Shown piece after piece: positions 885 to 42,139 of a stretch of 42,247 nucleotides of DNA. Position 1 is the first letter of the stretch; each line of letters starts with the position of its first letter. The notes under the pieces are model-generated. The model had not been told where the DNA came from and did not search any database. It saw nothing but the letters and a program-made list of their open reading frames with translations. Origin of the DNA: Chloroflexota bacterium (GTDB lineage Bacteria > Chloroflexota > Anaerolineae > JAAEKA01); the NCBI GenBank assembly GCA_029558955.1, contig JAKQCW010000303.1, positions 1-42,247 of the forward strand, in the 5' to 3' direction. Position numbers and translations under genes: made by a program.

Positions 885-912
885 TAATGCGTGATGCGTG
901 ATGCGTAACCCG
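885..912 (+). repeat. Short heptamer array, 4 units, TRANNCG in + orientation
   Basis: Exactly four contiguous heptamers: TAATGCG, TGATGCG, TGATGCG, TAACCCG. They lie 15 bp upstream of the polyprenyl synthase start and point away from it, facing the much longer, oppositely oriented array at 1001-1349. The fni/polyprenyl synthase gap is therefore bounded by inward-pointing arrays. Confidence 0.9.
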
Positions 913-1000
913 GAATCGCGGGCGAGGTCTTTTTTTAACGGGGGTGTGTGACGTGTCAGGTGGGACGTGTCAGATGTTTTGGGTCAGATGTTTTCTGTCA
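913..1000. other. Spacer between two opposed heptamer arrays
   Basis: This stretch holds degenerate relatives of the heptamer (for example GTGACGTGTCA and GGGTCAGATG) and no credible gene. The ORFs crossing it are low-complexity products of the adjoining repeat, with seven-residue periodicity. Confidence 0.6.
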
Positions 1001-1349
1001 CGGGTTGCGGACTGCGGGTCACGGGTCACGAATTCCGGGTCACGGGTTGCGGACTGCGGGTCACGGGTCACGAATTCCGGGTCACGGGTTACGGACTGCG
1101 GGTCACAGGTCACGAATTCCGGTTACGGGTTACGGGTTACGGGCTACGGGCTACCGGGCACGGATTTCGAGTTACGAGTTACTGGTTACGGGTCACAGGT
1201 CACGGGTTACGAATTCCGGGTCACGGGTTACGGACTGCGGGTCACAGGTCACGGGTTCCGGGTTCCGGGTTACGGGTTACGAGTTGCGGGCTACCGGGCG
1301 CGGATTCCGAGTTACGAGTTACGAGTTACGGGTTACGAGTTACGTCTCA
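1001..1349 (-). repeat. Long heptamer array (about 50 units) ending at the fni stop codon
   Basis: On the + strand it reads as back-to-back 7-mers such as CGGGTCA, CGGGTTA, CGGACTG and CGAATTC; on the - strand this is the TRACCCG/TAACTCG series, sense to fni. The first part has a higher-order unit of six heptamers (42 bp) at 1001-1042, repeated at 1043-1084 and again, with small changes, from 1085. Each higher-order unit carries one GAATTC. One lost base near 1120 shifts the phase, after which the period of 7 continues to the fni stop (TGA, minus strand, 1349-1347). It contains no unique spacers and so is not CRISPR. Confidence 0.95.
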
Positions 1350-2375
1350 CGGGTTTGCCAGCACCAGCCGACCCGGCTCGCGCAGGGCGGCTATGTCGCC
1401 GGCGCCGGCGCAGAACATGGCGATGCGCAGCTCGTCGGCCAGCGCGTCGATGGTATCCACCACCGCTTCGACCGATTGCACCGCGGCCTTGAGGAAGGGG
1501 GAGGCCAGGCCGGCCGCACTGGCGCCCAAGGCCAGGCACTTGGCCACGTCGATGCCGTCGCGAATGCCGCCGCTGGCGATGCGCGGCAGGTGGGGAAGGG
1601 CCGCTCCCACCGTGGTCAAACTCTCGGCCGTGGGAATGCCCCAGTCGGCAAAGGTGCGGGCCAGCCGGCGCAGCCGTTCGGTCGGCGCCCGGTGATATTC
1701 CACCTCGCTCCAACTGGTGCCGCCCGCGCCGGCCACGTCGATGGCGGCCACGCCGGCCGCGGCCAGATCGCGGGCCAGGCTGGCGCTGATGCCCCAGCCC
1801 ACCTCCTTGACCACCACCGGTGCGCCCAGCCCGCGGCAGACTTCCTCGATCTTGGCCAGCAAGCCCGCCCAGTGCCAGTCGCCGTCGGCCTGCAACACCT
1901 CTTGCAGCGGGTTCAGGTGCAGAATCAACGCATCAGCCTCGATCATCTCCACGGCGCGGCGGCAGTGGTCGACGCCGTAGCCTTTGTTGAGCTGCACCGC
2001 GCCCAGGTTGGCCAGCAACAGGATGTCAGGGGCCTCGCGGCGCACCCGAAACGACTCCGCGGTGGCGGCCAGCTCCAGCCCGGTGCGCTGCGAGCCCAGG
2101 CCCATGGCGATGCCGCGGGCCTGAGCGCCGGCCGCCAGGCGGCGGTTGATCAGTTCAGCCTGTTCGGTGCCGCCGGTCATGGAGGAGATCAGCAGCGGAA
2201 CGCCCAGCACCTTGCCCAGCAGCGGACTGCGCAGATCGACAGCCGCCAGATCCAACTCCGGCAGCCCTTGATGGACGAAGCGATAGCGTTCCAGGCCGGT
2301 GGTCAGCCGGGGAAAAGTGACCGCTTCTTCCAGGTTGATGCGAATGTGGTCGGCCTTGCGCGCCTGATGATCCAA
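1347..2375 (-). CDS. fni: Type 2 isopentenyl-diphosphate delta-isomerase (FMN-dependent)
   Basis: Interconverts IPP and DMAPP using reduced FMN and Mg2+; cytosolic TIM-barrel enzyme of about 340 residues, and this one has 342. Visible family marks are RKADHIRI at the N-terminus (residues about 6-13), SSMTGG near 64-69, the MGLGSQR flavin/substrate segment near 91, LHLNPLQE near 152-159, [11 protein letters not shown] near 188 and ASGGIRDG near 270. The start is TTG at 2375, chosen because translation reaches the conserved N-terminus directly and GGGAG lies 8 nt upstream; no ATG fits. It supplies DMAPP to the polyprenyl synthase downstream on the same strand. A promoter at 2472-2444 is divergent from acpP. 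The stop TGA is the first unit of the heptamer array. Confidence 0.95.
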
Positions 2376-2443
2376 CAGCGATACTCCCGTAACTTGGTTG
2401 CGCCGGGGGTGTTACTACGACTGCCGCAGCACCGGCGTCGGGA

Positions 2444-2472
2444 ATCTTACCCGCGGGCGCGCGGCTTGTCAA
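2444..2472 (-). promoter_or_regulatory. Predicted sigma70-type promoter of fni
   Basis: On the minus strand TTGACA (2472-2467) is followed after 17 bp by TAAGAT (2449-2444). The -35 is perfect and the -10 matches 4 of 6. Its -35 is only 28 bp from the -35 of the divergent acpP promoter, so a regulator bound between could affect both. Confidence 0.65.
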
Positions 2473-2500
2473 AACCTGGCGGTGCTGTGCGCCGGGGAAA

Positions 2501-2529
2501 TTGACAGCTTCTGGCAGGACTGCTAGAAT
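2501..2529 (+). promoter_or_regulatory. Predicted sigma70-type promoter of acpP
   Basis: TTGACA (2501-2506), a 17-bp spacer, then TAGAAT (2524-2529). The expected +1 is near 2536, giving a leader of about 40 nt that contains the AAGGAAG ribosome site at 2561-2567. Confidence 0.8.
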
Positions 2530-2576
2530 AGCAGCACCCAACCAACACACAAAGGATTATAAGGAAGGCTAACCCC

Positions 2577-2828
2577 ATGGCAAACCAAGAGGCAATTTTC
2601 GAGGCAGTGCGCGCCATCATCGTCGATCAACTGGGCGTCGATGAGGACTCCGTGACGATGGAAGCCAGCTTCCGCGACGATCTCGACGCCGACTCTCTGG
2701 ACCTGGTCGAGTTGATCATGGCCTTTGAGGAGCAGTTCGGCGGCGAAATCTCCGACGAAGAGGCGCAGAAGATCACCACCGTCGGCGAGGCGGTGGCGTT
2801 CCTGGCGGCGCACGGCGCGACGGCCTAA
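2577..2828 (+). CDS. acpP: Acyl carrier protein
   Basis: Carries growing acyl chains on 4'-phosphopantetheine during fatty acid synthesis in the cytosol. The 83-residue product is acidic and has the usual four-helix ACP pattern, with the attachment serine in the DSL motif (DADSLD, Ser about 38-39) followed by [19 protein letters not shown], the standard recognition helix. The start ATG at 2577 has AAGGAAG with 9-nt spacing. It is a single-gene unit with its own strong promoter and a strong hairpin behind it, rather than lying in a fab cluster. No phosphopantetheinyl transferase or fab gene is visible nearby. Confidence 0.95.
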
Positions 2829-2858
2829 GGCCGGCGTCGGCATTCGGCAGGTTCACGA

Positions 2859-2888
2859 GCGGGCGCCGTCATGACGGCGCCCGCTTTC
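2859..2888 (+). terminator. Rho-independent terminator after acpP
   Basis: A perfect 12-bp palindromic stem, GCGGGCGCCGTC with its complement (2859-2870/2873-2884), followed by TTTCGCTGTTT. The T-run is short for a classical terminator, but the stem is long and GC-rich and lies directly behind the acpP stop. Confidence 0.65.
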
Positions 2889-2901
2889 GCTGTTTGAGTG
2901 C

Positions 2902-3507
2902 GTGGTGTACAGCGTGGAAACCATCAGTGTGATCGTGCTGGCCGGCGGCGCCAGCCGGCGCATGGGCGCCAACAAGGCGCTGCTGCCGGTCTCTGACCAA
3001 GAGACGCTGGTGAGCCGGGTGGTGGCCAACCTGGCGGTGCTCTCCGACGACATCGTGCTGGTGAGCAACACGCCGGAGCTGTACGCGGACCTGCCGGTGC
3101 GTCACACCGCCGATCAGTTTGTCGGCGCCGGGCCGCTGGCCGGGCTGCACGCCGGCCTGCAGGCGGTGCAAAGGCGCTGGGCCTTCATCGCCGCCTGCGA
3201 CATGCCGCTGATCGATCACCGGCTGGTGCGCTACATGGTGCTGTTGACCGAGGGCTACGACGCGGTGGCGCCGCGCATCGACCAGGCTATCGAGCCGCTG
3301 CACGCGCTGTACAGCCAGGACTGCCTGCCGGCCATCGAGGCGCGGCTGAAGGATGGCCAGCGCCGCATGATCTCCTTCTACCCCGACGTGCGCGTGCGCT
3401 ACATGGAAAGCCGCGAGGTCGCTATCTTCGACCGCGAGGGGCGCAGCTTCGCCAACGCCAACACGCCGGAGGATTGGGAGCGGCTGAAAACGCTGATTGG
3501 TGCGTAA
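2902..3507 (+). CDS. mobA: Molybdenum cofactor guanylyltransferase (MobA)
   Basis: Transfers GMP from GTP to molybdopterin-Mo to make the MGD form of the cofactor used by DMSO-reductase-family enzymes; cytosolic. The 201-residue product begins with the nucleotidyltransferase signature LAGGASRRMGANK (residues about 13-25), has the metal-binding ACDMPLI near 97, and ends with the NANTPEDWERL tail typical of MobA. A GTG start at 2902 is the best fit; alternative in-frame GTGs lie close by and the site has no strong Shine-Dalgarno. No other moa/moe genes are in the window. Its stop TAA (3505-3507) is the first unit of a heptamer array. MobA is preferred over the related CTP-type MocA on the C-terminal motif, but MocA is not fully excluded. 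Confidence 0.85.
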   Translation: MVYSVETISVIVLAGGASRRMGANKALLPVSDQETLVSRVVANLAVLSDDIVLVSNTPELYADLPVRHTADQFVGAGPLAGLHAGLQAVQRRWAFIAACDMPLIDHRLVRYMVLLTEGYDAVAPRIDQAIEPLHALYSQDCLPAIEARLKDGQRRMISFYPDVRVRYMESREVAIFDREGRSFANANTPEDWERLKTLIGA

Positions 3508-3640
3508 CGAGTAACGAGTAACCCGTAACCCGGAGGGCGCGTGCGCAATTCCGGTCACGTAACTCGTAACGAGTAACCCGTAACCCGGAGGGGGCGTGCG
3601 CAATTCCGGTCACTTGTTACGCATTACGCATTACGGATCC
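3505..3640. repeat. Heptamer element between mobA and the ATL gene, inverted ends
   Basis: Starts with TAACGAG, TAACGAG, TAACCCG, TAACCCG from the mobA stop codon. A block containing CGGAGGG and GTGCGCAATTCCGGTCAC then occurs twice, about 55 bp apart, with more TAACNNG units between. It ends with two CGCATTA units (3620-3633), which are TAATGCG on the minus strand. The left end thus points right and the right end points left. Confidence 0.9.
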
Positions 3641-3643
3641 CCC

Positions 3644-3997
3644 ATGCCCTCCTTCTTCGACCAGGTCTACGCCGTGGTGCGCCAGATTCCGCCGGGCAAA
3701 GTGGCCAGCTATGGCCAGGTGGCCGCGCTGTTGGGCCATCCGCGGGCCGCGCGCACGGTGGGCTGGGCGCTGGCCGCGCTGCGCGGGGAGAACGACTCGG
3801 ACGTGCCCTGGCAGCGGGTGATCAACTCCCAGGGCCGTGTCAGCATCCGCAACATGGAACACGCCCCGGAAGAACAGCAGATGCTGCTGGAAGCTGAGGG
3901 GGTGGAATTCAACCTCAACGGCTATACCGACTGGCAACGCTTCGGCTGGGCGGGATTGAGCGCCGTCGAACTGGAGGCACTGCTGGCCGCGCTGTAA
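3644..3997 (+). CDS. Alkyltransferase-like protein (ATL), MGMT fold without the acceptor cysteine
   Basis: Binds O6-alkylguanine in DNA and flags it for nucleotide excision repair, without removing the alkyl group itself. The 117-residue product is just the C-terminal DNA-binding domain of MGMT: IPPGKVASYGQVA near residues 14-26, the ARTVGWAL recognition helix with its arginine near 37, then PWQRVIN near 59. In true MGMT this last motif is PCHRV with the alkyl-accepting Cys; Trp at that place is the hallmark of ATL proteins. The start ATG at 3644 is chosen over upstream in-frame codons because those lie inside the heptamer repeat. Single-domain size and the PWQRV motif make the call firm. Confidence 0.9.
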   Translation: MPSFFDQVYAVVRQIPPGKVASYGQVAALLGHPRAARTVGWALAALRGENDSDVPWQRVINSQGRVSIRNMEHAPEEQQMLLEAEGVEFNLNGYTDWQRFGWAGLSAVELEALLAAL

Positions 3998-4010
3998 CCC
4001 CACGCACCGC

Positions 4011-4078
4011 TTGGGCCGGTCTCCGACCGTGCCCGCACCCATGCGCCGCTCGGGCCGGTCTCCGACCGTGCCCGCACT
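4011..4078. repeat. Two copies of the GGTCGGAGACC hairpin repeat
   Basis: Reads as CCGGTCTCCGACCGTGCCC twice, 39 bp apart, in the gap between the ATL gene and the nitrilase-fold gene. The same core occurs near 7223, 17905, 23564 and 30011. The core CGGTC-GGA-GACCG can form a small hairpin. Confidence 0.85.
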
Positions 4079-4093
4079 TGATTGGAGTCCCCA

Positions 4094-4921
4094 ATGACAC
4101 GAGAAATCACCGTCGCCCTGGTGCAGATGACCCCGACCCTGGGCGATATCGAAGCCAACCTGCGCAAGATGACCGAATTCGTCGAGCGCATCTGCCAGGA
4201 ACAGCCCGTCGACCTGATCGTCTTCCCCGAGCTGGCCACCACCGGCTATGAGTGCGGCCCGCGCTTCACCGAGTTGGCCGAATACGTGCCTGGCCACAGC
4301 GTCAACATGCTGGCCAAGCGCGCCAACGACTACGATGTCCACATCGCCTTCGGCATGGTGCTGAAGGAGCGGGTGGAGAGCATCCTCTACAACGCGGCCG
4401 TGCTCCTCGGACCGGAAGGGGAACTGGTGGGCAGCTACCGCAAGGTGCATCTCAAGGGCGAGGAGAAGCTGGCCTTCCGCAATGGCTACCGCTTCATCGT
4501 TTGGGATGTGGAGTTCCGCAACGGACCCGGCCGCGTCGGTCTGCTGATCGGCTGGGACCTGGCCTTCCCCGAGGCGGTGCGCAGCCTGACGCTGGACGGC
4601 GCGGAGATCGTGGCGGTCTGCGCCAACTGGGAGATCGACGAGGACGCGCACTGGCGGGCCTACAACGTGGCGCGCGCCTGCGAAAATGGCGTGTTCATCG
4701 CGGCCACCAACCGGGCCGGCGAGGAACCCAGCTACAGCTTCGCCGGCGACTCCATGATCGTCGGCCCCAACGCCGAGCTCTACACCAACCTGGAGGAGCC
4801 AGTGGAGGGCTACGCCATCGCCACCATCGACCTGGACGACGTGCGCCGCACCCGCGAGGCCTCGCAGATCCTTCAGTGCCGCCAGCCGATCACGTATCGC
4901 AACGTGGTGAAGAAGTACTGA
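4094..4921 (+). CDS. Nitrilase-superfamily (carbon-nitrogen hydrolase) protein lacking the catalytic cysteine
   Basis: Family members hydrolyse amides or nitriles with a Glu-Lys-Cys triad. This 275-residue protein has the fold marks and two of the three residues: Glu46 in VFPELATTGYE and Lys117 in YRKVHLKGEEK. At the Cys position the usual ICYD/ICWD is IGWD, with Gly153 encoded by GGC at 4550-4552, followed by the conserved FPEAVR. As read, the enzyme should be inactive as an amidase and may be a binding or regulatory paralogue; a TGC-to-GGC sequence error cannot be ruled out. ATG 4094 has TTGGAG 6 nt upstream. It precedes the GH13 gene, separated by an inverted repeat. Confidence 0.85.
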   Translation: MTREITVALVQMTPTLGDIEANLRKMTEFVERICQEQPVDLIVFPELATTGYECGPRFTELAEYVPGHSVNMLAKRANDYDVHIAFGMVLKERVESILYNAAVLLGPEGELVGSYRKVHLKGEEKLAFRNGYRFIVWDVEFRNGPGRVGLLIGWDLAFPEAVRSLTLDGAEIVAVCANWEIDEDAHWRAYNVARACENGVFIAATNRAGEEPSYSFAGDSMIVGPNAELYTNLEEPVEGYAIATIDLDDVRRTREASQILQCRQPITYRNVVKKY

Positions 4922-4930
4922 GGCTGAATC

Positions 4931-5006
4931 TTCGCACGCAAAGACGCAAAGTACGCTAAGGTCAGAGCTTCTTCTTCTTTGCGGGCTTTGCGCCTTTGCG
5001 TGCGAA
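4931..5006. repeat. Inverted repeat with GCAAAG units between two genes
   Basis: The left arm 4931-4950 (TTCGCACGCAAAGACGCAAA) pairs with 4987-5006, 19 of 20 positions complementary, around a loop rich in CTTCTT. The arms carry the repeated unit ACGCAAAG. It may work as a terminator for the nitrilase-fold gene or be a mobile palindromic repeat. There is no downstream T-run on either strand. Confidence 0.75.
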
Positions 5007-5039
5007 CAGCTTTCCGCGCCCCCACAGAAAGTCGACGCC

Positions 5040-6911
5040 ATGCCTCACCTGCCAGCCTGGCTCCAATCCGTCCACCACGACGGGTCTGATGGTTTCGTGT
5101 CCAACCCCTATCCCCGCCTGGGCGAGAGGGTGCGCATCCGCCTGCGCGCCGGCATGGACGCGCCGATCCGCCGCGTCTTCGTGCGCACGGCGCCGGACGG
5201 CGAACAGGCTTTCACCCTCATGACGCCGGAGGAGGCGACGCCGCCATCCCGCTGGTGGCAGGCTGAGCTCCCCATCAATCAGCCGTTGGTCCACTACCGC
5301 TTCACGCTGGAGGCAGAGGATGGCGTCTGGTGGCTGAACGCGGCCGGTCCCAGCTATTTCGATCCCCTGGACTCGGCCGATTTCAAGCTGTTGGCCGACT
5401 ACGATGCGCCAGCCTGGCTGCATGAGACGGTCTTCTATCAGATCTTCCCCGACCGCTTTGCCAACGGCGACCCCGACAACGATCCGCAGCCGCACGAGTA
5501 TGAGTACCGCGGCCATGGCCCACAGACCTTCCCCTGGGGCACGCTGCCGCCGGACGACACCCCCTTTCCGCTGGTCTTTTTTGGCGGCGACCTGCAAGGA
5601 ATCGTTCAACATCTCGATTATGTCGAGCAGCTCGGCGTCAACGCGCTCTATCTCAACCCGATCTTCAGCGCGCCCTCCAACCACAAATACGATGTCATCG
5701 ACTATGAGCATGTGGACCGGCATTTCGGCGGCGATGCGGCGCTGGCCAGCCTGCGGGCAGCGCTGGACCAGCGGCAGATGCGCTATCTGCTGGACATTGT
5801 GCCCAACCACTGCGGCTACTGGCATCCCTGGTTCCAGCAGGCCCGCGCCGACGCGGCCGCGCCTGAGGCGGCTTTTTTCACCTTCAGCCAGCACCCAGAG
5901 CAGTATGCCGCCTGGTTGGGGGTATGGGTGTTGCCCAAGCTGAATTACGGCAGCGCCGAGCTGCGGCGACGCATCTACGGGGGCGAGGACGCGGTCTTCC
6001 GCCGCTGGCTGCAGCCCCCCTTCTCGGCCGACGGCTGGCGGGTGGATGTGGCCAATATGCTGGGCCGGCAGGGCGCCAGCCAACTGGGCGTCGATGTGGC
6101 CAGGGGCATCCGCCAGGCGGTGAAGGAGACCCGACCCGACGCCTATCTGCTGGGCGAGAACTTTTTCGACGCCACCAGCCAGCTCCAGGGGGATCAATTC
6201 GACGGCGTGATGAACTACAGCGGCTTCAGCAAGCCGTTGCGTCATTGGCTGCAAGGCTATCGTCAGGGCGCCTGGGGGATGGACGACAGCATCTCCTCGC
6301 CGCAGCCCTTCCCCACGGCCGCGCTGGCCGCGGGCTGGCAAAGCCGCCTGGCGGCCATCCCCTGGGCCGTGGCCCTGCAACAGTTCAATCTGCTGGCCAG
6401 CCACGACACGCCGCGCATCCAGACGCAGGTGGGCGACAACGAGGCGCTGCACCGGCTGGCCGCCGCCCTGCTGCTCACCTTCCCCGGCGTCCCCAGCCTG
6501 TATTACGGCGACGAGATCGGCCTGAGCGACCTGCCGCAGCTGGGCTCGCGCGGCTGCATGGTCTGGGAGGAGCGGCGCTGGAACCGCGGTCTGCTGGACT
6601 TCTACCGCACGCTGATCCATCTGCGGCGCAGCTCAGAGGCTTTGCAGCGGGGCGGCTTCCAACTGCTGGCCGTGGAGCGGGACAGCATCGCCTATCAGCG
6701 GGCCACAGCCAGCCAGCGCGTGCTGGTCATTGCCCACCGCGGCCAGCAGCCGCGGCCAGCCAGCCCGCTGCCGGTGGCCCACGGCGGCATCCCCGACGGC
6801 GCGCGCTTCACCGAGCTGTGGAGCGGCGCAGAAGCTGCGGTGGTGGGAGGCGCGCTGCCCCTGGCCGAACATCCCCAGGGCGCGACGGTGTGGGTAATGC
6901 GTAATGCGTAA
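5040..6911 (+). CDS. GH13 alpha-glucan hydrolase, cyclomaltodextrinase/maltodextrin-glucosidase type
   Basis: Cleaves alpha-1,4 links in maltodextrins or cyclodextrins. The 623-residue protein has an N-terminal beta-sandwich of about 110 residues (CBM34-like), then the GH13 barrel starting at VFYQIFPDRFANGDP. All four GH13 regions are present: DIVPNH near 250, the nucleophile Asp336 in GWRVDVAN, the acid/base Glu373 in LLGENF, and Asp456 in LLASHDTPR. No signal peptide is visible, so it is probably cytosolic and acts on imported oligosaccharides. A second, similar GH13 lies at 19.3-21.1 kb. The last five residues (VMRNA) are encoded by the heptamer array, whose third unit supplies the stop. 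Confidence 0.92.
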   Translation: MPHLPAWLQSVHHDGSDGFVSNPYPRLGERVRIRLRAGMDAPIRRVFVRTAPDGEQAFTLMTPEEATPPSRWWQAELPINQPLVHYRFTLEAEDGVWWLNAAGPSYFDPLDSADFKLLADYDAPAWLHETVFYQIFPDRFANGDPDNDPQPHEYEYRGHGPQTFPWGTLPPDDTPFPLVFFGGDLQGIVQHLDYVEQLGVNALYLNPIFSAPSNHKYDVIDYEHVDRHFGGDAALASLRAALDQRQMRYLLDIVPNHCGYWHPWFQQARADAAAPEAAFFTFSQHPEQYAAWLGVWVLPKLNYGSAELRRRIYGGEDAVFRRWLQPPFSADGWRVDVANMLGRQGASQLGVDVARGIRQAVKETRPDAYLLGENFFDATSQLQGDQFDGVMNYSGFSKPLRHWLQGYRQGAWGMDDSISSPQPFPTAALAAGWQSRLAAIPWAVALQQFNLLASHDTPRIQTQVGDNEALHRLAAALLLTFPGVPSLYYGDEIGLSDLPQLGSRGCMVWEERRWNRGLLDFYRTLIHLRRSSEALQRGGFQLLAVERDSIAYQRATASQRVLVIAHRGQQPRPASPLPVAHGGIPDGARFTELWSGAEAAVVGGALPLAEHPQGATVWVMRNA

Positions 6912-7061
6912 CTCGTAACCGGAATGGTGAGAGTTGTGTCTGGGTTGCGGGTTGGAGTAATGCGTAATGCGTAATGCGTAACTCGTAACCGGAATGGTGA
7001 GAGTTGTGTCTGGGTTGCGGGTTGGACGTTATGCGTAATGCGTAACTCGTAACCCGGAGGC
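6895..7061 (+). repeat. Heptamer array downstream of the GH13 gene, with a 70-bp-spaced direct repeat
   Basis: TAATGCG (6895), TAATGCG (6902) and TAACTCG (6909) overlap the end of the GH13 gene; the in-frame stop is the TAA of the third unit. A block containing GGAATGGTGAGAG and GGGTTGCGGGTTGGA follows and is repeated together with the heptamers, spaced 70 bp (ten heptamers). A third heptamer run ends near 7058. Confidence 0.9.
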
Positions 7062-7176
7062 CGCGGGAGGGGTCTTTGAGTGGCGGTGATGGTGGTCTGT
7101 GAGTTAGCCGCCGCGCCGGGCGGCGTTCTGGCCCAAGCACACAGAAACACGCCAGCAAGCCACCTCGCACCCATCC
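7062..7176. other. Gap between opposed heptamer arrays; first copy of a 55-bp direct repeat
   Basis: No gene is visible. From 7131 to about 7185 runs a block (CCCAAGCACACAG through CACCCATCCGGG) that recurs at 7237-7291, both copies leading into minus-oriented heptamers. The second copy begins in a diverged GGTC...GACC hairpin unit (GGTCAAAGACCGGCCC). Confidence 0.7.
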
Positions 7177-7316
7177 GGGTTACGAGTTACGAGTTACGTG
7201 TTACGTGTTACTGCCGGCAGGCGCGGTCAAAGACCGGCCCAAGCACACAGAAACACGCCAGCAAGCCACCTCGCACCCATCCGGGTTACGCATTACGCAT
7301 TACGCATTACGAGTCA
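7177..7316 (-). repeat. Heptamer arrays downstream of the AspT-type transporter gene
   Basis: Two runs, 7177-7211 and 7283-7316, read TTACGAG/TTACGTG/TTACGCA on the + strand, which is TAACTCG, TAACACG and TAATGCG on the minus strand, sense to the transporter gene. The gene's stop TGA (7316-7314) is the first unit, TGACTCG. They face the array that follows the convergent GH13 gene. Confidence 0.9.
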
Positions 7317-8963
7317 CGAAGCCAAGAGCAACAACAACGCCTGCGCCAGCAAAATCTTGCCGATGGTGGCGATGGGGAACATCAGCGCGTAGCCCACGTG
7401 GGGCAGCTCGTCATGTGACTGATCGACCGCGAAGCCCAGCACCCCGGGCTGGGTATGGATGCCGGAGAGCATGCCCATCAGCAGGCCAAAGGGGATCTTG
7501 AACAGCTTGTAGCCTACCAACAGAGTCAGGAAGGCCGTGGCGCAGGAGATCACCGCGCCGGCGACGAAGAGCTGCACGCCTCCTCCCTGGCTGAGCGTCT
7601 CAACGAAGGTGTAGCCGGAGCGCAGACCGATGCTGGCCAGCAACATGATCAGACCCAGCTGGCGCACGGTCAGGTTGGCGCTGTAAGGCATGGTCCAGAC
7701 CAGCGGGCCGGTGCGACGGATCGCGCCCAGGATCAGGCCGACGATCAGCGGGCCGCCGGCGTTGCCCAGCGCAAAGCTGCTGCCGCCTGGCAGGGTAAAC
7801 TCGATCTTGCCCAGCAGCAGGCCCAGCACCAGCCCCACACCCAGCGACAGCAGGTCAATCTCGCTCAGCGCCTTGTACGAATCGCCGAACAGCTTGGAGA
7901 TATCGTTCATCTGCTCGCGCGGGGCCACCACCCGCACCCGGTCGCCCAAGTCCAGCACCATGTCTCCATCGGCCAGCAGGTCCACATCCCCCCGCCGCAC
8001 GCGGGTGATGATGGCCCCGTAGCGCGCGGGCAGTTGCAGATCCTTGATCCGCTGGCCAGCAAGGGCCGGCTTGGAGAGGAAAATCCGGCGGAAGTCGTAG
8101 TGGCTGCGATCCAGAGCCAGGTGCTCATCAATCTGCTCGCCCAGGACAGCCGCCACGGCTGCCACCTCATGAGGGTCGCCGATGACGCTGACCCTGTCGC
8201 CCAACTCGAAGCGCGTTTCCCCAGTTACCAGGTGCTCATGGTCCTCGTGCATGATGCGGCTGAAGACCACGTGCCAATGATGCCGATTCAACAGTTGCTG
8301 AACGGTCTCCTGCGTGGCCTGGAGGCGGGTGACATGCAGCGTGACGTTGTTGATCTCCTGCTCTACCAGATAGCTGGTGCCGCGCAGCCGCCTGGCTTCG
8401 GCGCGGTAGTCGATCTTCCACAGCCCTTGCAGCGCATAGGCCACCAAGATAACGCCCAGCACGCCCATCGGGTAAGCAACCGAGTAGCCCACGGTCGGAT
8501 CAGCCACCGCAGCGCCGGACGCTGCGGCTGGCATCGAACTGCTGGCGGTCTCGATCACCGCGGCCAGCGCCGGTGTGTTGGTCAACGCGCCCGCGTAGAG
8601 CCCGGCCGTGACCGGCGCCTGCAGGCTGAGCGCCATATGGGCCCCGGCCGCGATCAGCGCGGCAATGGCCAGCACCGCCAGGGCAGCCAGGTTGTTGCGC
8701 AGCCCTTCACGCGTCAATGAGGCGACGAAGCCCGGCCCGCTGGCCAGACCCACCGTATAGACAAACAGCACCAGACCCAGCTCGAAGACGACGGTGGGCA
8801 GTTGCAGATGCGGATCCAGCGCGCCCACGGCCAGGCCCACAAAGAGCACGGCTGCCACGCCCAGGCTGGCCCCTTTGATCTTGATCCGGCCGATGGCATA
8901 GCCGACGGCGGACACGGCGAAGAGCAACAGAATCGAGTTTTCGACGAGGAATTCAACGACCAT
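7314..8963 (-). CDS. Aspartate:alanine-exchanger family (AspT/YidE-type) transporter with RCK_C domains
   Basis: Inner-membrane protein of 549 residues with the duplicated AAE fold: about five hydrophobic helices (residues 1-190), a cytosolic middle part with two TrkA-C/RCK_C-like domains (about 200-370, including DRVSVIGDPHEV and DRVRVVAPREQM), then a second set of helices to the end. The repeated pocket segments are AGALTNTPALAA near 127 and SGIHTQPGVLGFA near 514. The substrate is unknown; characterised relatives exchange dicarboxylate amino acids. The start ATG 8963 lies inside the upstream GNAT gene (11-nt overlap) with AGGA just before it, implying translational coupling. It is the last gene of a five-gene operon that also carries a LysE-type exporter. 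The stop codon comes from the heptamer array. Confidence 0.9.
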   Translation of the reverse strand: MVVEFLVENSILLLFAVSAVGYAIGRIKIKGASLGVAAVLFVGLAVGALDPHLQLPTVVFELGLVLFVYTVGLASGPGFVASLTREGLRNNLAALAVLAIAALIAAGAHMALSLQAPVTAGLYAGALTNTPALAAVIETASSSMPAAASGAAVADPTVGYSVAYPMGVLGVILVAYALQGLWKIDYRAEARRLRGTSYLVEQEINNVTLHVTRLQATQETVQQLLNRHHWHVVFSRIMHEDHEHLVTGETRFELGDRVSVIGDPHEVAAVAAVLGEQIDEHLALDRSHYDFRRIFLSKPALAGQRIKDLQLPARYGAIITRVRRGDVDLLADGDMVLDLGDRVRVVAPREQMNDISKLFGDSYKALSEIDLLSLGVGLVLGLLLGKIEFTLPGGSSFALGNAGGPLIVGLILGAIRRTGPLVWTMPYSANLTVRQLGLIMLLASIGLRSGYTFVETLSQGGGVQLFVAGAVISCATAFLTLLVGYKLFKIPFGLLMGMLSGIHTQPGVLGFAVDQSHDELPHVGYALMFPIATIGKILLAQALLLLLAS

Positions 8964-10998: not shown

Positions 10999-11030
10999 TG
11001 CAAACAAGCAGCGATCAGCGGTTGCAAATT

Positions 11031-11358
11031 TGATGGCTGCCACGCCGGAGTCGAGCCTTCAGGCGGGTCCGTGCGCGCCTCGCATCGGCCAGACCCGGCT
11101 AAAGCCTCGACTCCGCGCCAATTGTGATGGCTGCCACGCCGGAGTCGAGCCTTCAGGCGGGTCCGTGCGCGCCTCGCATCGGCCAGACCCGGCTAAAGCC
11201 TCGACTCCGCGCCAATTGTGATGGCTGCCATGCCGGAGTCGAGCCTTCAGGCGGATCCGTGCGCGCCTCGCATCGGCCAGACCCGGCTAAAGCCTCGACT
11301 CCGCGCTGACCCCGCTAAAGCCTCGACTCCGTGCAGATCCGGCTAAAGCCTCGACTCC
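11031..11358. repeat. Three tandem 94-bp stem-loop repeats plus two extra half-arms
   Basis: Units start at 11031, 11125 and 11219, nearly identical. Each contains an imperfect inverted repeat (arms of 23 nt, 20 matching) running from GGAGTCGAG to CTCGACTCC, at 11047-11114, 11141-11208 and 11235-11302, with a 22-nt loop. Two further right arms (CTAAAGCCTCGACTCC) end at 11330 and 11358. A lone right arm (AAGCCTCGACTCC) occurs near 17857. ORFs in it are repeat artefacts. Confidence 0.93.
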
Positions 11359-30010: not shown

Positions 30011-30150
30011 GGACGGGCACGGTCGGAGACCGGCCCGAGCTGGGTGCTGTGGCAGGTGCGACGGGCTCGGTCGGAGACCGGCCCGAGCTGGGTGCTGTGG
30101 CCGGCGCGACGGGCTCGGTCGGAGACCGGCCCGAGCTGGGTGCTGTGGCC
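30011..30150. repeat. Three tandem copies (48-bp period) of the GGTCGGAGACC hairpin repeat
   Basis: Cores begin at 30015, 30063 and 30111, each followed by CTGGGTGCTGTGGC; a fourth, partial GGCCCGAGC follows at 30150. They fill the gap between a GNAT gene and the GT39 start. The period is 48 bp, a multiple of 3, so long ORFs pass through it. Confidence 0.9.
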
Positions 30151-30169
30151 GGCCCGAGCTTGGGTGGGA

Positions 30170-33568: not shown

Positions 33569-33574
33569 TCGCCC

Positions 33575-34579: not shown

Positions 34580-34585
34580 GCAACT

Positions 34586-36227: not shown

Positions 36228-36737
36228 ATGACCAAACACCTCCTCTTCATCCATGGCAAGGACGGCAGCAGCCAGGGCTTCAAGGTGCAGTTTTTGCGCC
36301 GGCTCTATCCTGACCTGCTGGCGCCTGACTTCCCCGGCGACTTCTGGCAGCGCATGGCGCGGCTGGAGCAGGTCAGCGGCGATTCGCCCGGTTGGACCAT
36401 GATCGGCTCCAGCATGGGCGGGCTGATGGCCGCGGTCTTCGCCTGCCAACACCCCGGCCAGGTGGACCGGCTGGTGCTGCTGGCGCCGGCGCTGGCCTTC
36501 ATCGACCTGGCGCAGACGCCGCTGCCCCCCAGCGACACGCCGGCGGTGATCTACCACGGCCAGCAGGATGAGATGGTGCCGCTGGAAAGGACGCGACAGG
36601 TGGCCGAACAGCTTTTCCCCAACCTCCAGTTCCACGTGGTCAACGCCACCCACGACCTGAACCCGCTGATGGATGCCATCGACTGGCCGGCCCTGCTCGG
36701 AGCGCCGCGCCCCGGATTGCCGGGAGACCAGCCGTGA
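36228..36737 (+). CDS. Alpha/beta-fold serine hydrolase
   Basis: 169-residue small hydrolase. HLLFIHGKDGSS at the N-terminus is the oxyanion region, the nucleophile elbow is GSSMGG (about 63-68), the acid is in YHGQQDEMVP near 120, and the His is in VNATHDLNP near 145. Its size fits the YqiA/UPF0227- or RBBP9-like small esterases. It overlaps plsC by 4 nt (GTGA), so the two genes are translationally coupled; a lipid or acyl-ester substrate is plausible by association only. Confidence 0.85.
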   Translation: MTKHLLFIHGKDGSSQGFKVQFLRRLYPDLLAPDFPGDFWQRMARLEQVSGDSPGWTMIGSSMGGLMAAVFACQHPGQVDRLVLLAPALAFIDLAQTPLPPSDTPAVIYHGQQDEMVPLERTRQVAEQLFPNLQFHVVNATHDLNPLMDAIDWPALLGAPRPGLPGDQP

Positions 36738-37516: not shown

Positions 37517-37552
37517 TCGCGACGCGCTGCCCCCGTCCCCTTCGCGCAGAAC

Positions 37553-38062
37553 TCACTCCGGCGCACCGGCTGGTCTGAAGCGGGCCATGGCGTACACGTC
37601 CACGTACCGGCCGTCGCGGAAGGAATACTGGCGCAGCGTGCCTTCGATGACAAAGCCGGCCCGCTGGTAGAGCCGCACGGCCGGCTCGTTGTCCGTGTAG
37701 ACCTCCAGCTCCAACCGCTGCACGTTGAGCCAGTTGTCAGCCACATCCAGCGCGGCCTGCATCAAGGCTGTGCCGACGCCCTGGCCCTGGAAGTCATCGC
37801 GCACGGAGATGCCGATCCCGGCGGCGTGCTGGCGGCGCGGGCGGTTGGGATTGGTGTGGATGTTCAGATGGCCCACCACCTCGCCCTCGACGCAGGCCAC
37901 GATCCCGTAGATCCCTTCGGGCGGTTCGGCCAGCCGCTTGCGCCACATCTCCAGCGAGGGAAAGGGCAACTGGGTGGTGCCCCAGATGACCTGCCGGCCT
38001 GAATAGAGCCGGTGCAGCGCCTCATGGTCCGTTGGTTCGACCCGTCTGATGGTGATGTTCAT
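37553..38062 (-). CDS. GNAT-family N-acetyltransferase
   Basis: 169 residues. ITIRRVEPTDHEALHRLYSG starts the fold; the acetyl-CoA loop is GIGISVRDDFQGQGVGTALMQAALDVADNW (about 83-112, with QGQGVG), followed by NVQRLELEVYTDNEPAVRLYQRAGFVIEGTLRQYSF, typical of PhnO/RimI-like and YhhY-like small-molecule acetyltransferases. The substrate is unknown. It starts 10 nt after the SnoaL-like gene, so the two form a minus-strand pair. Confidence 0.9.
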   Translation of the reverse strand: MNITIRRVEPTDHEALHRLYSGRQVIWGTTQLPFPSLEMWRKRLAEPPEGIYGIVACVEGEVVGHLNIHTNPNRPRRQHAAGIGISVRDDFQGQGVGTALMQAALDVADNWLNVQRLELEVYTDNEPAVRLYQRAGFVIEGTLRQYSFRDGRYVDVYAMARFRPAGAPE

Positions 38063-38072
38063 GGCAGGTTTG

Positions 38073-38447
38073 CTAACCCTTCACGTATGACAGCTTCTCG
38101 CTGATCAGCCCATCCGTCACGGAAAAAATGTCCACGCCGCGCACATGGCCCGGCGCGCCGGCCGCATCGACCCAGTCATAGCGCCAACGCATCACGCACT
38201 GACGGCCCAGGCCGAAGATTTCTTCGATCTGAATGTGGGCCTGGGGCGATGCGGCGAAGAACTCCTGCCAGAACTGCGTCACCGCCGCTTTGCCTTTGTA
38301 GGCTGTGCCGTCCGGCGCGGGGCTGGTGTTCTCGAAGAGACAGTCCTCGCTCATCAGCGCCATCATTGCCGGGACATCGTGCCGGTTGAAGGCGTCGTTG
38401 AACGCCAACGCCGCGCGCATCGCCGCTTCGATCTTGGTCATTTTCAT
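38073..38447 (-). CDS. SnoaL/NTF2-like family protein
   Basis: 124 residues with the cone-shaped alpha+beta barrel pattern: a helical start AALAFNDAFNRHDVPAMMALMSEDCLFENTSP (12-43), then beta strands GTAYKGKAAVTQFWQEFF, HIQIEEIFGLGRQCVMRWRYDWV and GVDIFSVTDGLISEKLSYV. Proteins of this type are polyketide cyclases, isomerases or scaffolds; the catalytic residues needed for a firm call are not evident. It precedes the GNAT gene in a two-gene unit. Confidence 0.82.
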   Translation of the reverse strand: MKMTKIEAAMRAALAFNDAFNRHDVPAMMALMSEDCLFENTSPAPDGTAYKGKAAVTQFWQEFFAASPQAHIQIEEIFGLGRQCVMRWRYDWVDAAGAPGHVRGVDIFSVTDGLISEKLSYVKG

Positions 38448-38621
38448 GGTGAACGATTACCTCTGTACTGCAACTAAACGGCGCGGGCCTGCGAATCTCG
38501 CGTCGATTCGGCAACGGCCACTGGGAGTATCATCACAATGACCTGTCGTTGGGTCTGGTAAAATGATGCAGCGCGCAACAGAGACTCCGAAATCTGGCGC
38601 GACCCCCCTCAGGAGCAATCT

Positions 38622-39401
38622 GTGTTAAAACTGCGCGCCAAGAGCCGCCCTCGCCCGCCAGCCGGCGCCGGCGGCTATCACCACGGCAACACCCACCTGA
38701 TCGACCTGCGTTCGGTCACCAAGAGCTACCAGACCGCAGCCGGCGAATTTCCCGCGCTCAGGCAGATCGACCTGCTGGTCGACCGCGGCGAATTCGTGGC
38801 GGTGGTCGGCAAATCGGGCAGCGGCAAGTCCACCCTGATCAACATGGTCACCGGCATCGACCGGCCCACCGCCGGCCAGGTGTTGATCGGCGACACGGCG
38901 GTCCACACCCTGAGCGAGGGGCAGATGGCGGTCTGGCGCGGCAAGCATGTGGGGGTGATCTTCCAGTTCTTCCAGTTGCTGCCGACGCTGACGGTGCTGG
39001 AAAACGTCATGCTGCCCATGGACTTCTGCAACACCTACCCCAGCCGGGCGCGGGTGCAGCGCGCCATGGCCCTGCTGGAGGAGGTGGCCATGGTCGAACA
39101 CGCCGACAAACTGCCCTCGGCCACCTCCGGCGGCCAGCAGCAGCGGGTGGCCATCGCCCGCGCCCTGGCCAACGACCCTGACATCATCGTGGCCGACGAG
39201 CCCACCGGCAACCTGGACAGCAAGACCGCCGACGCGGTCTTTCAGCTCTTCCAACGCCTGGTGGATGAAGGCAAGACGATCCTGATGGTGACGCACGACG
39301 AGGAGCTGGCCCGCCGCGCCGGCCGGACGGTGACGATTGCCGATGGGTTGATCGTGAGTGATACGGCGCGCGGGGGCCGCAATGGGGAGTTGGGGCAATG
39401 A
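38622..39401 (+). CDS. ABC transporter ATP-binding protein, LolD/MacB type
   Basis: ATPase of a MacB/LolCDE-like exporter; 259 residues. Walker [10 protein letters not shown] is near 65-73, the Q-loop [16 protein letters not shown] near 108-123, the signature [14 protein letters not shown] near 165-178, Walker [14 protein letters not shown] near 187-199, and the H-loop MVTHDEEL near 224. GTG 38622 has AGGAG 6 nt upstream; a later start near [10 protein letters not shown] would also keep the domain. It is transcribed with the permease 31 nt downstream. It probably energises export of lipids, lipoproteins or drugs; the cargo cannot be read from sequence. Confidence 0.93.
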
Positions 39402-39432
39402 GGCATTGGGGAATGGGCCATGGAGCGATGGG
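39402..39432 (+). other. G-rich ATGGGG-type stretch between ABC ATPase and permease
   Basis: From about 39382 into this spacer, units like AATGGGGAG, AATGAGGCATTGGGG and AATGGGCCATGGAG recur with loose spacing. It looks like a repeat relic but is in the position of the permease's translation start, with GGAG 7 nt before ATG 39433. Confidence 0.45.
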
Positions 39433-42051
39433 ATGACGACGACCCGTTCCGGCGCTGAACTGCCCAGTGCAAGAGCCAGCCGTGCGCCTGCCCTCAGCGG
39501 CGCAGATCCGGCCAGCGACCCTGCGCCCATTCCCAGTTCATCCGTCAACAAGCCTGCGCGCCGGCTTCTGAGCCCCCGCTGGGCCAAAGTTGGCCGCGAT
39601 CTGACCAGCCACCGGATGCGCTCGCTGCTGGTGGTGCTCTCCATCGCGGTGGGCGTCTTCGCCGTCGGCGTGATCGTGGGCACGCGCCAGATTCTCAACC
39701 ATCAGCTCCATGCCAGCTTCGCAGCGGTCAACCCCAGCGATGCCATTCTGGGCACCAGCGGCTTCGACGCCGACACCCTGACGGCCATCCGGCGCATGCC
39801 GGAGGTCGAATCGGCCTCGGCCCGCTTCAGCCTCTACACCCGCGCCCATCTGGGCGATGGCCGCTGGCTGGAGCTGACGCTCTTTGCCCTGCCCGACTGG
39901 CAGGACATCCCCCTCAACATCGTGCGGCAGGAAAGCGGCCCGTGGCCGCCGGCGCGCGACGCCATCGCCGTGGAACGCATGTCCCTGCCCATGCTGGACG
40001 CTGCCATCGGCGACAGCCTGACGCTGGAGCTGCCCGACGGCCGCCGGCGCACGGTAAACGTGACGGGAACCGCCCACGACATCAACCTGCCGCCGGCCCG
40101 TTTCACCAACCAGGCGTTCGGCTACGTGACCTTCGATACCCTGGAGCGGTGGGGAATTCCGAAACGCTTCACCAGCCTCAGCATCCGGGCGGCCGATCCC
40201 GCGTCCGGAGTCAAGGATCACGCCTACGTCCAGCAAGTCACCGATCTGGTCCAGGACAAGCTGGAAAAGGGCGGGCGGGCGGTCAATTTCACCTACGTGG
40301 CCGACCCGAAGAAGCATCCCGCCGACGAGGTGCTGAACCCCGTCTTTCTGCTGCTGGGCGTGCTGGGGCTGCTCTCGCTCCTCCTGAGCGCGTTTCTGGT
40401 GGTGAACACCATCGCCGCGGTCATGGCGCAGCAGGTGCGTCAGATCGGCGTGATGAAGACCATCGGCGCCGGCTTCGGCCAGATCGTCCGGCTCTACCTC
40501 GGCATGGTGCTGATCTTCGGCCTGCTGGCGCTGCTGGTGGCGCTGCCGGCCGGCGTGGCCGGCGCCTATGGCTTCACCATCTTCCTGTCGCAGTTCCTCA
40601 ACTTCGACGTGGTCTATGAAGGGGTTCCCCTGAGCGCGCTCGCGGTGCAGGTGCTGGTGGGCCTGCTGGTGCCGCTGGCCGCCGCGCTGATCCCCATCTA
40701 CAGCGGCGCGAGGGTCACCATTCGCGAGGCCATCAGCAATTACGGCCTGGGCCAGGGGCGTTTTGGCCACGGCCCAGCCGACCGCTTCCTGGTGGCCAGC
40801 CAACGTTACGCGCCCTGGCTCAGCCGCCCGCTGGTCATCTCGCTGCGCAACACCTTTCGCCGCAAAGGCCGGCTGGCGCTGACCATGACGACGCTGACTC
40901 TGGGCGGGGCGATCTTCATCGCGGTGCTGTCGGTGCGCACGTCGCTCTACCAGACGGTGGACGACGCCATCAGAAACAACAACTTCCACATCGTCATCGG
41001 CTTCGACCGCGACCTGCGGGTTGAGGTCTTGCAGAACGAGGCGCTGCAGGTTCCCGGCGTCATCGCGGCCGAAAGCTGGGGCCGCGCCAGCACCCGGCGC
41101 CAACGGCCTGACGCGCCCGACGACGCTGGCGTGCCCGGTTTCCCGCTGTCCGGCCAGTCGGAAGGGCTCGGGGCAACCCCTCCCGGCATGAGGGGGGGCG
41201 AGAGCGACGAGATACGCCTCCTGGCCCCGCCGGCCGACAGCCAGATGATCCAGCCGCAGTTGACGGCCGGCCGCTGGCTGCTGCCAGAGGATGAAAACGC
41301 GCTGGTGGTGAACACCAATTTCATGGATGCCGAGGAGGACGTCGCCATCGGCGACACCATCACGCTGCGCATCGACGGCAAGGACAGCGACTGGGTGGTG
41401 GTGGGCGTGGCAGAAGGGGTGTTGGACCAGGCGACCATCTACACCAACAGCGAGTATTTCGGCCGGCTGACCGGCCGGGCCGGCCGGGCCAACAGCCTGC
41501 GCGTCCTGACCGACAGCGAGGATCCCGCCGAACACCGGCGCATCGCCGCGGCGTTGGAACACCACTTCGAGGACGCCGGCTACCACGTGACGCAGCTCTC
41601 CACCCGCGCCGAGAACCTGGAAGGGACCGAATACCAGTTCAGCATTCTGGTCAACATGCTACTGGTGATGACCTTCCTGATGGCGTTGGTGGGGGGTCTG
41701 GGTCTGATGGGCACCATGAGCATCAGCGTCATCGAGCGCACCCGCGAGATCGGGGTCATGCGGGCCATCGGCGCCGCCACGCGCGCCATCCTCCAGATCA
41801 TCATCGTGGAAGGGGTGCTGATCGGCCTGATCAGTTGGGCGCAGGCCACCCTTTTGGCTTTCCCGCTGAGCCGGCTGTTGAGCGATCAGGTGGGGATTGC
41901 CTTCACCGATTCCCCCCTCAGCTTTTCCTTTTCCTTGCCCGCCATCGCCCTCTGGCTGCTCATCGTGGCCCTGGTCGCGGCGCTGGCCAGCTACCTGCCC
42001 GCCCGCACCGCCTCACGCCTGACCGTGCGCGAGGTGTTGGCGTATGAGTGA
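39433..42051 (+). CDS. ABC transporter permease with two FtsX domains (MacB/LolC-like)
   Basis: Inner-membrane permease partner of the ATPase just upstream; 872 residues. The N-terminal helix SLLVVLSIAVGVFAVGVIVG is followed by a large extracytoplasmic MacB_PCD domain, then an FtsX core (VFLLLGVLGLLSLLLSAFLVVNTIAAVMAQQVRQIGVMKTIGA, about 300-345) with two more helices. A second set (LRNTFRRKGRLALTMTTLTLGG..., second PCD, and VNMLLVMTFLMALVGGLGLMGTMSISVIERTREIGVMRAIGA) makes the typical tandem FtsX permease. ATG 39433 is chosen over 39358. The stop TGA is the first of 13 perfect TRATGCG heptamers. Confidence 0.92.
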   Translation: MTTTRSGAELPSARASRAPALSGADPASDPAPIPSSSVNKPARRLLSPRWAKVGRDLTSHRMRSLLVVLSIAVGVFAVGVIVGTRQILNHQLHASFAAVNPSDAILGTSGFDADTLTAIRRMPEVESASARFSLYTRAHLGDGRWLELTLFALPDWQDIPLNIVRQESGPWPPARDAIAVERMSLPMLDAAIGDSLTLELPDGRRRTVNVTGTAHDINLPPARFTNQAFGYVTFDTLERWGIPKRFTSLSIRAADPASGVKDHAYVQQVTDLVQDKLEKGGRAVNFTYVADPKKHPADEVLNPVFLLLGVLGLLSLLLSAFLVVNTIAAVMAQQVRQIGVMKTIGAGFGQIVRLYLGMVLIFGLLALLVALPAGVAGAYGFTIFLSQFLNFDVVYEGVPLSALAVQVLVGLLVPLAAALIPIYSGARVTIREAISNYGLGQGRFGHGPADRFLVASQRYAPWLSRPLVISLRNTFRRKGRLALTMTTLTLGGAIFIAVLSVRTSLYQTVDDAIRNNNFHIVIGFDRDLRVEVLQNEALQVPGVIAAESWGRASTRRQRPDAPDDAGVPGFPLSGQSEGLGATPPGMRGGESDEIRLLAPPADSQMIQPQLTAGRWLLPEDENALVVNTNFMDAEEDVAIGDTITLRIDGKDSDWVVVGVAEGVLDQATIYTNSEYFGRLTGRAGRANSLRVLTDSEDPAEHRRIAAALEHHFEDAGYHVTQLSTRAENLEGTEYQFSILVNMLLVMTFLMALVGGLGLMGTMSISVIERTREIGVMRAIGAATRAILQIIIVEGVLIGLISWAQATLLAFPLSRLLSDQVGIAFTDSPLSFSFSLPAIALWLLIVALVAALASYLPARTASRLTVREVLAYE

Positions 42052-42139
42052 TGCGTGATGCGTGATGCGTAATGCGTGATGCGTGATGCGTAATGCGTAA
42101 TGCGTGATGCGTGATGCGTAATGCGTAATGCGTAATGCG
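42049..42139 (+). repeat. Perfect 13-unit heptamer array (TRATGCG)
   Basis: Thirteen uninterrupted units, each TGATGCG or TAATGCG, filling the whole gap from the permease stop codon to 1 bp before the stop of the gene on the other strand. Only the third letter position (A/G) varies. All units are in sense orientation to the permease. Confidence 0.97.

What the first reader, a model, noticed from the sequence alone, without database searches (positions are those of the whole stretch)
885..42139. A heptamer family (TRANNCG) that supplies the stop codons of genes in all three frames
Arrays with period 7 occur at 885-912, 1001-1349, 3505-3640, 6895-7316 and 42049-42139. In all five genes that run into an array in sense direction (fni, mobA, the GH13 at 5040, the AspT-type gene, the ABC permease), the stop codon is the TRA of an array unit. 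Since 7 mod 3 = 1, any three units give a stop in every frame. The GH13 shows this directly: units at 6895 and 6902 are out of frame and the third, at 6909, is the stop. The likely role is a portable translation terminator, or a repeat whose spread is tolerated only because it always closes the reading frame. Heptamer STRR repeats are known in heterocystous cyanobacteria, but I know of no report of stop-codon-bearing ones.
Basis: partly seen in the sequence, partly recalled or inferred. Interest (0 to 1): 0.9.

Follow-up and report, generated by a model that had tools for sequence, protein, structure and literature searches.

The report
Inward-facing stop-bearing heptamer repeat pairs
In this bacterial genome, tracts of a seven-base repeat between genes supply the stop codons of many genes they touch, but the tracts mostly face away from genes at gene starts just as at gene ends, and repeats without stop codons hug gene ends too, so they are likely spreading spacer DNA rather than stop signals.

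Summary
In detail: the arrays are where stated and all five named genes use an array TRA as stop. The own genome has 1211 overlapping pattern matches; 21 of 545 sampled gene ends stop inside an array.

Stopping inside a sense array is forced by period 7, as printed for TAACTGA repeats (PMC4679880). Of 30 multi-tract clusters 23 are inward pairs (> <) and none is < >. The TRA strand reads away from the gene at 34 of 39 3' ends and 36 of 41 5' ends. TRA is kept no better at 3' than at 5' edges (194 of 236, 79 of 97). Stop-free GGGGAYT arrays hug stops as closely (10 of 11 within 40 nt, against 26 of 29) but overlap them less (1 of 11 against 18 of 29). Two other genomes do show a 3'-end preference.

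So stop content explains why arrays may overlap a gene end, not where they lie or point. Best reading: paired heptamer repeats that grow up to gene edges. A one-way transcription insulator is not excluded.

The parts
884..915 (+). left half-tract of pair 1 (TAATGCG TGATGCG TGATGCG TAACCCG GAA), upstream of the polyprenyl synthetase gene (minus strand, start near 870)
951..1355 (-). right half of pair 1: degenerate heptamer tract, TRA on the minus strand; TRA at 1349-1347 is the stop of fni
2902..3507 (+). MobA-like NTP transferase; stop TAA is an array unit; one codon longer than array-free G001 (5 and 13 codons shorter than the more distant G005 and G004)
3498..3532 (+). left tract of pair 2
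3558..3587 (+). second left tract of pair 2, part of a 55-bp tandem duplication of tract plus spacer
3610..3639 (-). right tract of pair 2, 4 nt before the MGMT-like gene at 3644
5040..6911 (+). GH13 alpha-amylase-type gene; stop is the third array unit; ends WVMRNA* against WIEG* in array-free G004 and WVEQREG* in G003 (other heptamers)
6894..7056 (+). left half of pair 3: three tracts separated by GT-rich CCGGAATGGTGAGAG... spacers (70-bp tandem unit)
7176..7318 (-). right half of pair 3: two tracts, TRA on the minus strand
6890..7320 (+). whole intergenic region is predicted to fold as one long stem between the two stop codons (MFE -221.8 kcal/mol, z -9.3)
7314..8963 (-). AspT-type permease (Asp-Al_Ex, TrkA_C); stop TGA is the first array unit; ends LLAS* against VLG* in array-free G004
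39616..42051 (+). FtsX/MacB-type ABC permease; stop TGA is the first array unit, at exactly the place of the TAG/TGA of the nearest homologues in G001, G002, G004 (51-66% identical)
42044..42140 (+). unpaired plus-strand tract of TGATGCG/TAATGCG units

Best explanation
The arrays are mostly inward-facing pairs of seven-base repeat tracts lying between genes, and their units often replace the stop codons of genes they abut, likely as a by-product of repeat growth up to the gene edge rather than as a selected translation terminator. Shown: in loci with several tracts, each half is TRA tracts followed by a GT-rich spacer that often begins CCGGAA, and tract plus spacer is repeated in tandem. Shown: the TRA strand mostly reads away from the flanking gene, whether that is a gene end or a gene start. 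Shown: in five of five genes compared, the stop lies within two codons of that of the nearest array-free relative. Inferred: tracts lengthen by slippage and tandem duplication, new loci are seeded by an unidentified copying process, and insertions are kept only where they spare coding sequence. Inferred: TRA units do not attract arrays to stop codons. They let an array that reaches a gene end take over the stop harmlessly, whereas a stop-free array must stay just outside it.
For: Clusters: 51 in 833,692 sampled bases of the own genome; of 30 with several tracts, 23 are > <, 2 are > < > <, 5 are one-way and 0 are < >. Inward edges: 34 of 39 at 3' ends and 36 of 41 at 5' ends. TRA intact in 194 of 236 units at 3' edges and 79 of 97 at 5' edges, p=0.88; in tracts further in, 241 of 260 after gene starts and 129 of 157 after gene ends. 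Stop-free GGGGAYT arrays in Nostocales: 3' sense gaps -1 to 32 nt in 10 of 11, antisense gaps 71-227 nt in 7 of 7. Overlap of the stop: 18 of 29 with TRA units against 1 of 11 without. Tracts inside genes in the cross-phylum set: 14 of 14 in the stop-free reading direction. Stop against the nearest array-free relative: ABC 0, fni 0, AspT +1, mobA +1, GH13 +2 codons. Turnover: G003 has a different heptamer family (TGAAACG/TGAGGCG) at the same GH13 end; G001 has only 16 nt between mobA and the next gene. Spacers partly shared between loci. Array stops are mostly TAA (13 of 21) while other TRA stops are mostly TGA (292 of 372), so the array and not the native stop supplies the codon.
Against: Sixteen of 21 array stops have no TRA unit directly upstream, whereas arrival in a random frame would give about 7 of 21; so stop codons may seed or anchor arrays. 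Two more distant array-free relatives of mobA end 5 (G005) and 13 (G004) codons later. No copying enzyme was found and target-site duplications were not tested. Spread is inferred, not seen. The stop-free control is small (23 stretches after removing duplicates); its polarity counts alone (11:7 and 10:5) are weak. Against the cross-phylum set the overlap difference is not significant (26 of 65 against 1 of 11, p=0.085).
Confidence: 0.72

Rival explanations
1. Portable translation terminator: arrays are kept at gene 3' ends because three units give stops in all three frames and catch frameshifted or read-through ribosomes.
For: All five named window genes end in an array unit; 21 of 545 sampled ends do. 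Sense preference at 3' ends in G055 and G014. Overlap with the stop depends on stop content.
Against: Equal polarity at 5' ends in the own genome and across phyla. TRA no better kept at 3' edges. Stop-free heptamers lie as close to stops. Stopping inside a sense array is automatic. TRANNCG arrays absent at the mobA and fni ends of a same-genus relative, G001.
Confidence: 0.1
2. One-way transcription insulator: each half is C-rich and G-poor when read toward its gene, so RNA polymerase running into a gene from the intergenic side would load Rho and stop, while transcripts leaving the gene would not.
For: Read toward the gene, 15 of 36 halves of paired regions have a 78-nt window with C/G of 2.5 or more, against 12 of 358 halves of array-free regions. 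Spacers on the TRA strand are 46.5% G and 12.3% C. Two ORFs with a Rho RNA-binding domain in the genome.
Against: Pairs lie mostly between codirectional genes (21 of 23), where this would also stop the upstream transcript. Read away from the gene, 5 of 36 halves also pass the cut, against 5 of 358. Arrays are absent or different at the same loci in congeners, so no conserved role is visible. No RNA data.
Confidence: 0.12
3. RNA hairpin: the inverted tracts fold into long stems in mRNA that end or protect transcripts.
For: Window 6890-7320 z -9.3. Paired regions have median z -3.2 (20 regions) against -1.8 in 40 randomly drawn array-free regions, p=0.026.
Against: Only 10 of 20 paired regions have z below -3, and regions with unpaired tracts do as well (median -3.3, 6 of 11 below -3); window 845-1371 has z +2.4. 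Single tracts make up 21 of 51 clusters in the own genome and 49 of 57 in G003, G055 and G014.
Confidence: 0.1
4. Mobile fold-back or REPIN-like element with heptamer arrays as inverted ends, moved by a transposase encoded elsewhere in the genome.
For: Inverted pair architecture with 0 < > among 30 multi-tract clusters; two loci are > < > <, at L054 with near-identical cores; three Y1_Tnp ORFs in the genome.
Against: No arrays in the fetched surroundings of the three Y1_Tnp ORFs; cores between the halves share little sequence between loci; left and right halves of a locus can carry different spacers, as in L031 and L032; single tracts are common.
Confidence: 0.2

Closest known systems
GGGAATC / GGGGA(T/C)T heptamer repeats of Xanthomonas and Nostoc (PMC4692102; abstract, sections 10 and 13 and passages read)
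   Same: Heptamer tracts, intergenic, mostly between codirectional genes; in Xanthomonas convergent pairs (70 and 75 cases); G-rich strand on the sense strand near the stop codon, overlapping it in some cases, and on the antisense strand upstream of genes.
   Different: Units contain no stop codon and form G-quadruplexes; only a few pairs in Nostoc; no GT-rich spacer half-units are described in what I read.
TAACTGA repeats of Beggiatoaceae, cyanobacteria and Bacteroidetes (PMC4679880; abstract, section 15 and passages read)
   Same: Stop-bearing heptamers; the paper states that forward repeats give stops in all three frames and so overlap ORF ends by at most 18 nt, while reverse repeats are open.
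   Different: [quoted passage not shown] one indirect repeat only in the main genome studied.
STRR heptamers of heterocystous cyanobacteria (recalled; one search gave listings only)
   Same: Degenerate 7-base tandem tracts in many intergenic copies.
   Different: Reported from cyanobacteria; published units that I recall (such as CCCCART) are mostly not of the TRANNCG kind.
REPIN / RAYT system (PMC3116915, search listing only; features recalled)
   Same: Two inverted repeat units form one intergenic element.
   Different: No link to a Y1 transposase gene found; a single tract does not look like a palindrome (not tested formally).

Membership tests
Intergenic heptamer repeats (SSR/STRR type) | tandem 7-base unit, degenerate, many loci | tested here: met
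Intergenic heptamer repeats (SSR/STRR type) | mainly intergenic | tested here: met
   137 of 141 tracts intergenic or mostly so
Paired convergent heptamers of the Xanthomonas kind | two tracts in convergent orientation in one intergenic region | tested here: met
   23 of 30 multi-tract clusters
Paired convergent heptamers of the Xanthomonas kind | same strand rule: reads away from the gene at 3' and 5' ends | tested here: met
   34 of 39 and 36 of 41 in the own genome; not met in G014 at 5' ends (7 of 21)
Paired convergent heptamers of the Xanthomonas kind | runs of G able to form quadruplexes in the unit | tested here: not met
   commonest units TAATGCG, TAACTCG, TAACCCG, TGATGCG have no run of three G; spacers do contain GGG runs
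TAACTGA-type stop-bearing repeats | unit gives stops in all frames on one strand | tested here: met
   65 of 75 intergenic period-7 arrays have a stop on one strand only, 3 on both, 7 on none
[quoted passage not shown]
   5 of 41 5' edges are in that orientation
REPIN / RAYT | associated Y1 transposase gene flanked by the repeats | tested here: not met
   three PF01797 ORFs, no tracts in their 2.0-3.3 kb loci
MITE / fold-back transposon | target-site duplication and empty sites | not tested
   at the loci compared, relatives are too diverged between genes for a clean empty site
Selected translation terminator | orientation or TRA conservation specific to gene 3' ends | tested here: not met
   contrary trend in G055 and G014

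The most novel reading that the evidence does not exclude
Heptamer arrays in unrelated bacteria obey one orientation rule: whatever their sequence, with or without stop codons, one strand reads away from both flanking genes. In this genus the rule has built paired elements that act as one-way transcription insulators: C-rich, Rho-loadable RNA toward genes, and stop codons in every frame for any ribosome that runs into them from a gene.
Probability: 0.12. Interest if true: 0.75.

Novelty: new variant of a known kind. Interest (0 to 1): 0.45.

Why it matters
Arrays of this kind rewrite the 3' ends of genes in several phyla, yet how they spread and why they mostly point away from genes is unexplained. 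The comparison of stop-bearing with stop-free heptamers separates what the stop codon does (permits overlap with the gene end) from what it does not (placement and direction). That makes the orientation rule a directly testable question. It also warns that predicted C-terminal tails such as VMRNA are repeat-derived.

Tried and rejected
Rejected: a translation terminator as the cause of orientation. A native stop codon kept as the first unit: array stops are mostly TAA while other TRA stops are mostly TGA, although the place of the stop is kept. One half as a fold-back copy of the other: spacers of left and right halves differ at the same locus in L031 and L032. A conserved transposon core: cores are 0-227 nt and mostly unrelated. 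RAYT link: no tracts near the Y1_Tnp ORFs. A hairpin as a universal feature: half of the paired regions do not fold unusually well. Convergent gene ends as the preferred site: 2 of 59 tail-to-tail gaps against 31 of 308 codirectional gaps; codirectional against all others p=0.12. The reversed-pattern control of the genome search was rejected because TAATGCG read backwards is its own rotation. Lysobacter GGGANTC control: only 4 intergenic clusters in 8 stretches, uninformative. The organism could not be named: window proteins gave only distant hits to the fetched named loci. An earlier count gave 15 TAA and 6 TGA array stops; the listing shows 13 and 8, which is used here.
Full report
What is there. 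The window holds four intergenic regions with period-7 tracts. Three are pairs: plus-strand TRA tracts on the left and minus-strand TRA tracts on the right (884-915 with 951-1355; 3498-3587 with 3610-3639; 6894-7056 with 7176-7318). The fourth (42044-42140) is plus-strand only. All five stop codons are array TRAs.

Chance and extent. The own genome (4.59 Mb, 350 contigs, 94% complete) has 579+632 overlapping matches of three linked units. Same-genus genomes G001-G003 have 556, 209 and 1480; same-family G004 and G005 have 13 and 3; 37 of 60 relatives have at least one. In 658 kb the tract finder returns 141 tracts against 1-2 in each of five Markov controls.

Method for genes. No gene annotation was available, so I wrote a self-trained gene caller and ran it on 81 stretches of the own genome (582 genes, 545 usable 3' ends), 20 of G003, 16 of G055, 19 of G014 and the 117 named stretches. 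Start positions from it are less sure than stops. Stretches of the own genome are the window and contigs 1-80 from their first base, except two taken near hits (C7, C13); those of G055 and G014 were chosen near hits.

The tautology. Three consecutive units close all three frames, so a gene that enters a sense array must stop there. This was printed in 2015 for TAACTGA repeats (PMC4679880). The informative questions are where arrays lie, which way they point, and whether TRA is kept better where it serves as a stop.

Polarity. In the own genome 23 of 30 multi-tract clusters are > <, 2 are > < > <, 5 are one-way and none is < >. The TRA strand reads away from the gene at 34 of 39 gene 3' ends and 36 of 41 gene 5' ends (34 of 40 and 36 of 42 with the looser rule); with strict units 29:5 and 25:5, Fisher p=1. 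In the 117 named stretches it is 65:39 and 55:25, p=0.44, with 20 > < against 1 < > (strict units; 21 against 3 with the tolerant finder). Several of those stretches come from one genome, so they are not all independent. G003 gives 6:2 and 5:2. G055 and G014 differ: tracts are mostly single, 3' ends 9:4 and 12:4, 5' ends 2:3 and 8:11; pooled p=0.03 for a 3' preference.

TRA conservation. Units at 3' edges keep TRA in 194 of 236, at 5' edges in 79 of 97 (p=0.88); further in, 241 of 260 after gene starts and 129 of 157 after gene ends. The finder itself rewards TRA, but equally in all places.

Stop-free control. GGGGAYT tracts have no stop on either strand. In 23 distinct Nostocales stretches they show 11:7 inward at 3' ends and 10:5 at 5' ends, which is weak on its own; inward tracts start -1 to 32 nt from the stop in 10 of 11, outward ones 71-227 nt away (7 of 7). 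Nearness to the stop is the same for stop-bearing tracts of the own genome (26 of 29 within 40 nt). Overlap is not: 18 of 29 against 1 of 11, p=0.004; against the cross-phylum set it is 26 of 65 versus 1 of 11, p=0.085. Rehm and colleagues report the same placement, and convergent pairs, for GGGAATC in Xanthomonas, with few pairs in Nostoc (PMC4692102, sections 10 and 13 and passages read).

What happened at the five genes. Against the nearest array-free relative that reaches the C-terminus, the stop lies at the same codon for the ABC permease (VLAYE then TAG in G001 and G002, TGA in G004; 51-66% identical, possibly paralogues) and for fni (G001, G005), one codon later for the AspT-type gene (G004) and mobA (G001), two codons later for the GH13 (G004). 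Contrary rows: array-free mobA relatives in G005 and G004 end 5 and 13 codons later, and the array-bearing fni of G003 ends 4 codons later. G003 has arrays at the GH13 and AspT ends made of other heptamers. So arrays took over stops with little change to the proteins. Of 21 strict array stops 13 are TAA and 8 TGA; other TRA stops are 80 TAA and 292 TGA. The strict rule leaves out the GH13, whose array is short. In 16 of 21 no TRA unit lies directly upstream, more than random frame would give (p=7e-5). Either selection keeps arrays from entering the gene, or stop codons seed arrays; I cannot separate these.

Half-unit anatomy. Between tracts of the same orientation lie 9-70 nt spacers (zero at two places), often repeated in tandem within a locus and partly shared between loci (CCGGAATGGTGGGAGTTG and variants). 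On the TRA strand they are 46.5% G, 30.1% T, 12.3% C. Read toward the gene, 15 of 36 halves of paired regions contain a C-rich, G-poor 78-nt window (C/G of 2.5 or more) against 12 of 358 halves of array-free regions; read away, 5 of 36 against 5 of 358. The genome has two ORFs with a Rho RNA-binding domain. This is the basis of the insulator reading, which remains untested.

Folding. The 6890-7320 region is predicted to fold into one stem (z -9.3), 3500-3643 less so (z -2.7). Over 20 paired regions the median z is -3.2, over 11 with unpaired tracts -3.3, over 40 array-free regions -1.8 (paired against free p=0.026); 845-1371 shows none (z +2.4).

Literature. Ten searches were run. None listed a report of such arrays in Chloroflexi (which named Chloroflexi, returned nothing); the library lacks most subscription journals. 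A Geobacter metallireducens genome paper mentions four-unit heptanucleotide elements GGGACCG at 49 sites (PMC2700814, passages read).

Verdict. The open question is the orientation rule, which in the own genome is as strong at gene starts as at gene ends and is reported elsewhere for repeats without stop codons.

Noticed in passing
window 2985, 4015, 4054, 7225, 17912, 17949, 23571, 30021, 30069, 30117: A second dispersed palindromic repeat, GGTCNNNGACCGGC: 102 copies in the own-genome sample, 89 of them intergenic, against 2 in the G014 sample. REP-like; in tandem at 3999-4077 and 30012-30157.
   Followed up: partly
window 11027-11306: A 94-bp unit in three nearly identical tandem copies between genes.
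   Followed up: no
L040 1217-1322, L041 9943-9995, L050 5936-6007, L085 2446-2507: A related heptamer family TGAACGG/TAAACGG/TGATCGG in the same genome, also TRA-bearing but with GG instead of CG.
   Followed up: partly
G000:C281:21945 and G000:C219:9633: Two ORFs with a Rho RNA-binding domain in one genome.
   Followed up: no
L148 and L153 (G002), after the ABC permease stop: After TAG, a GGTTAAT/GGTGAAC-type tract, a short core and the reverse tract: the same > < layout by eye with another heptamer, the native stop kept.
   Followed up: partly
L145 (G001), end of fni: A relative without TRANNCG arrays here has TGA at a spacing of 7 four times from the stop codon on (TGAAGGC TGAACAA TGAACGA TGAGAAC), possibly a decayed or nascent array.
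   Followed up: no
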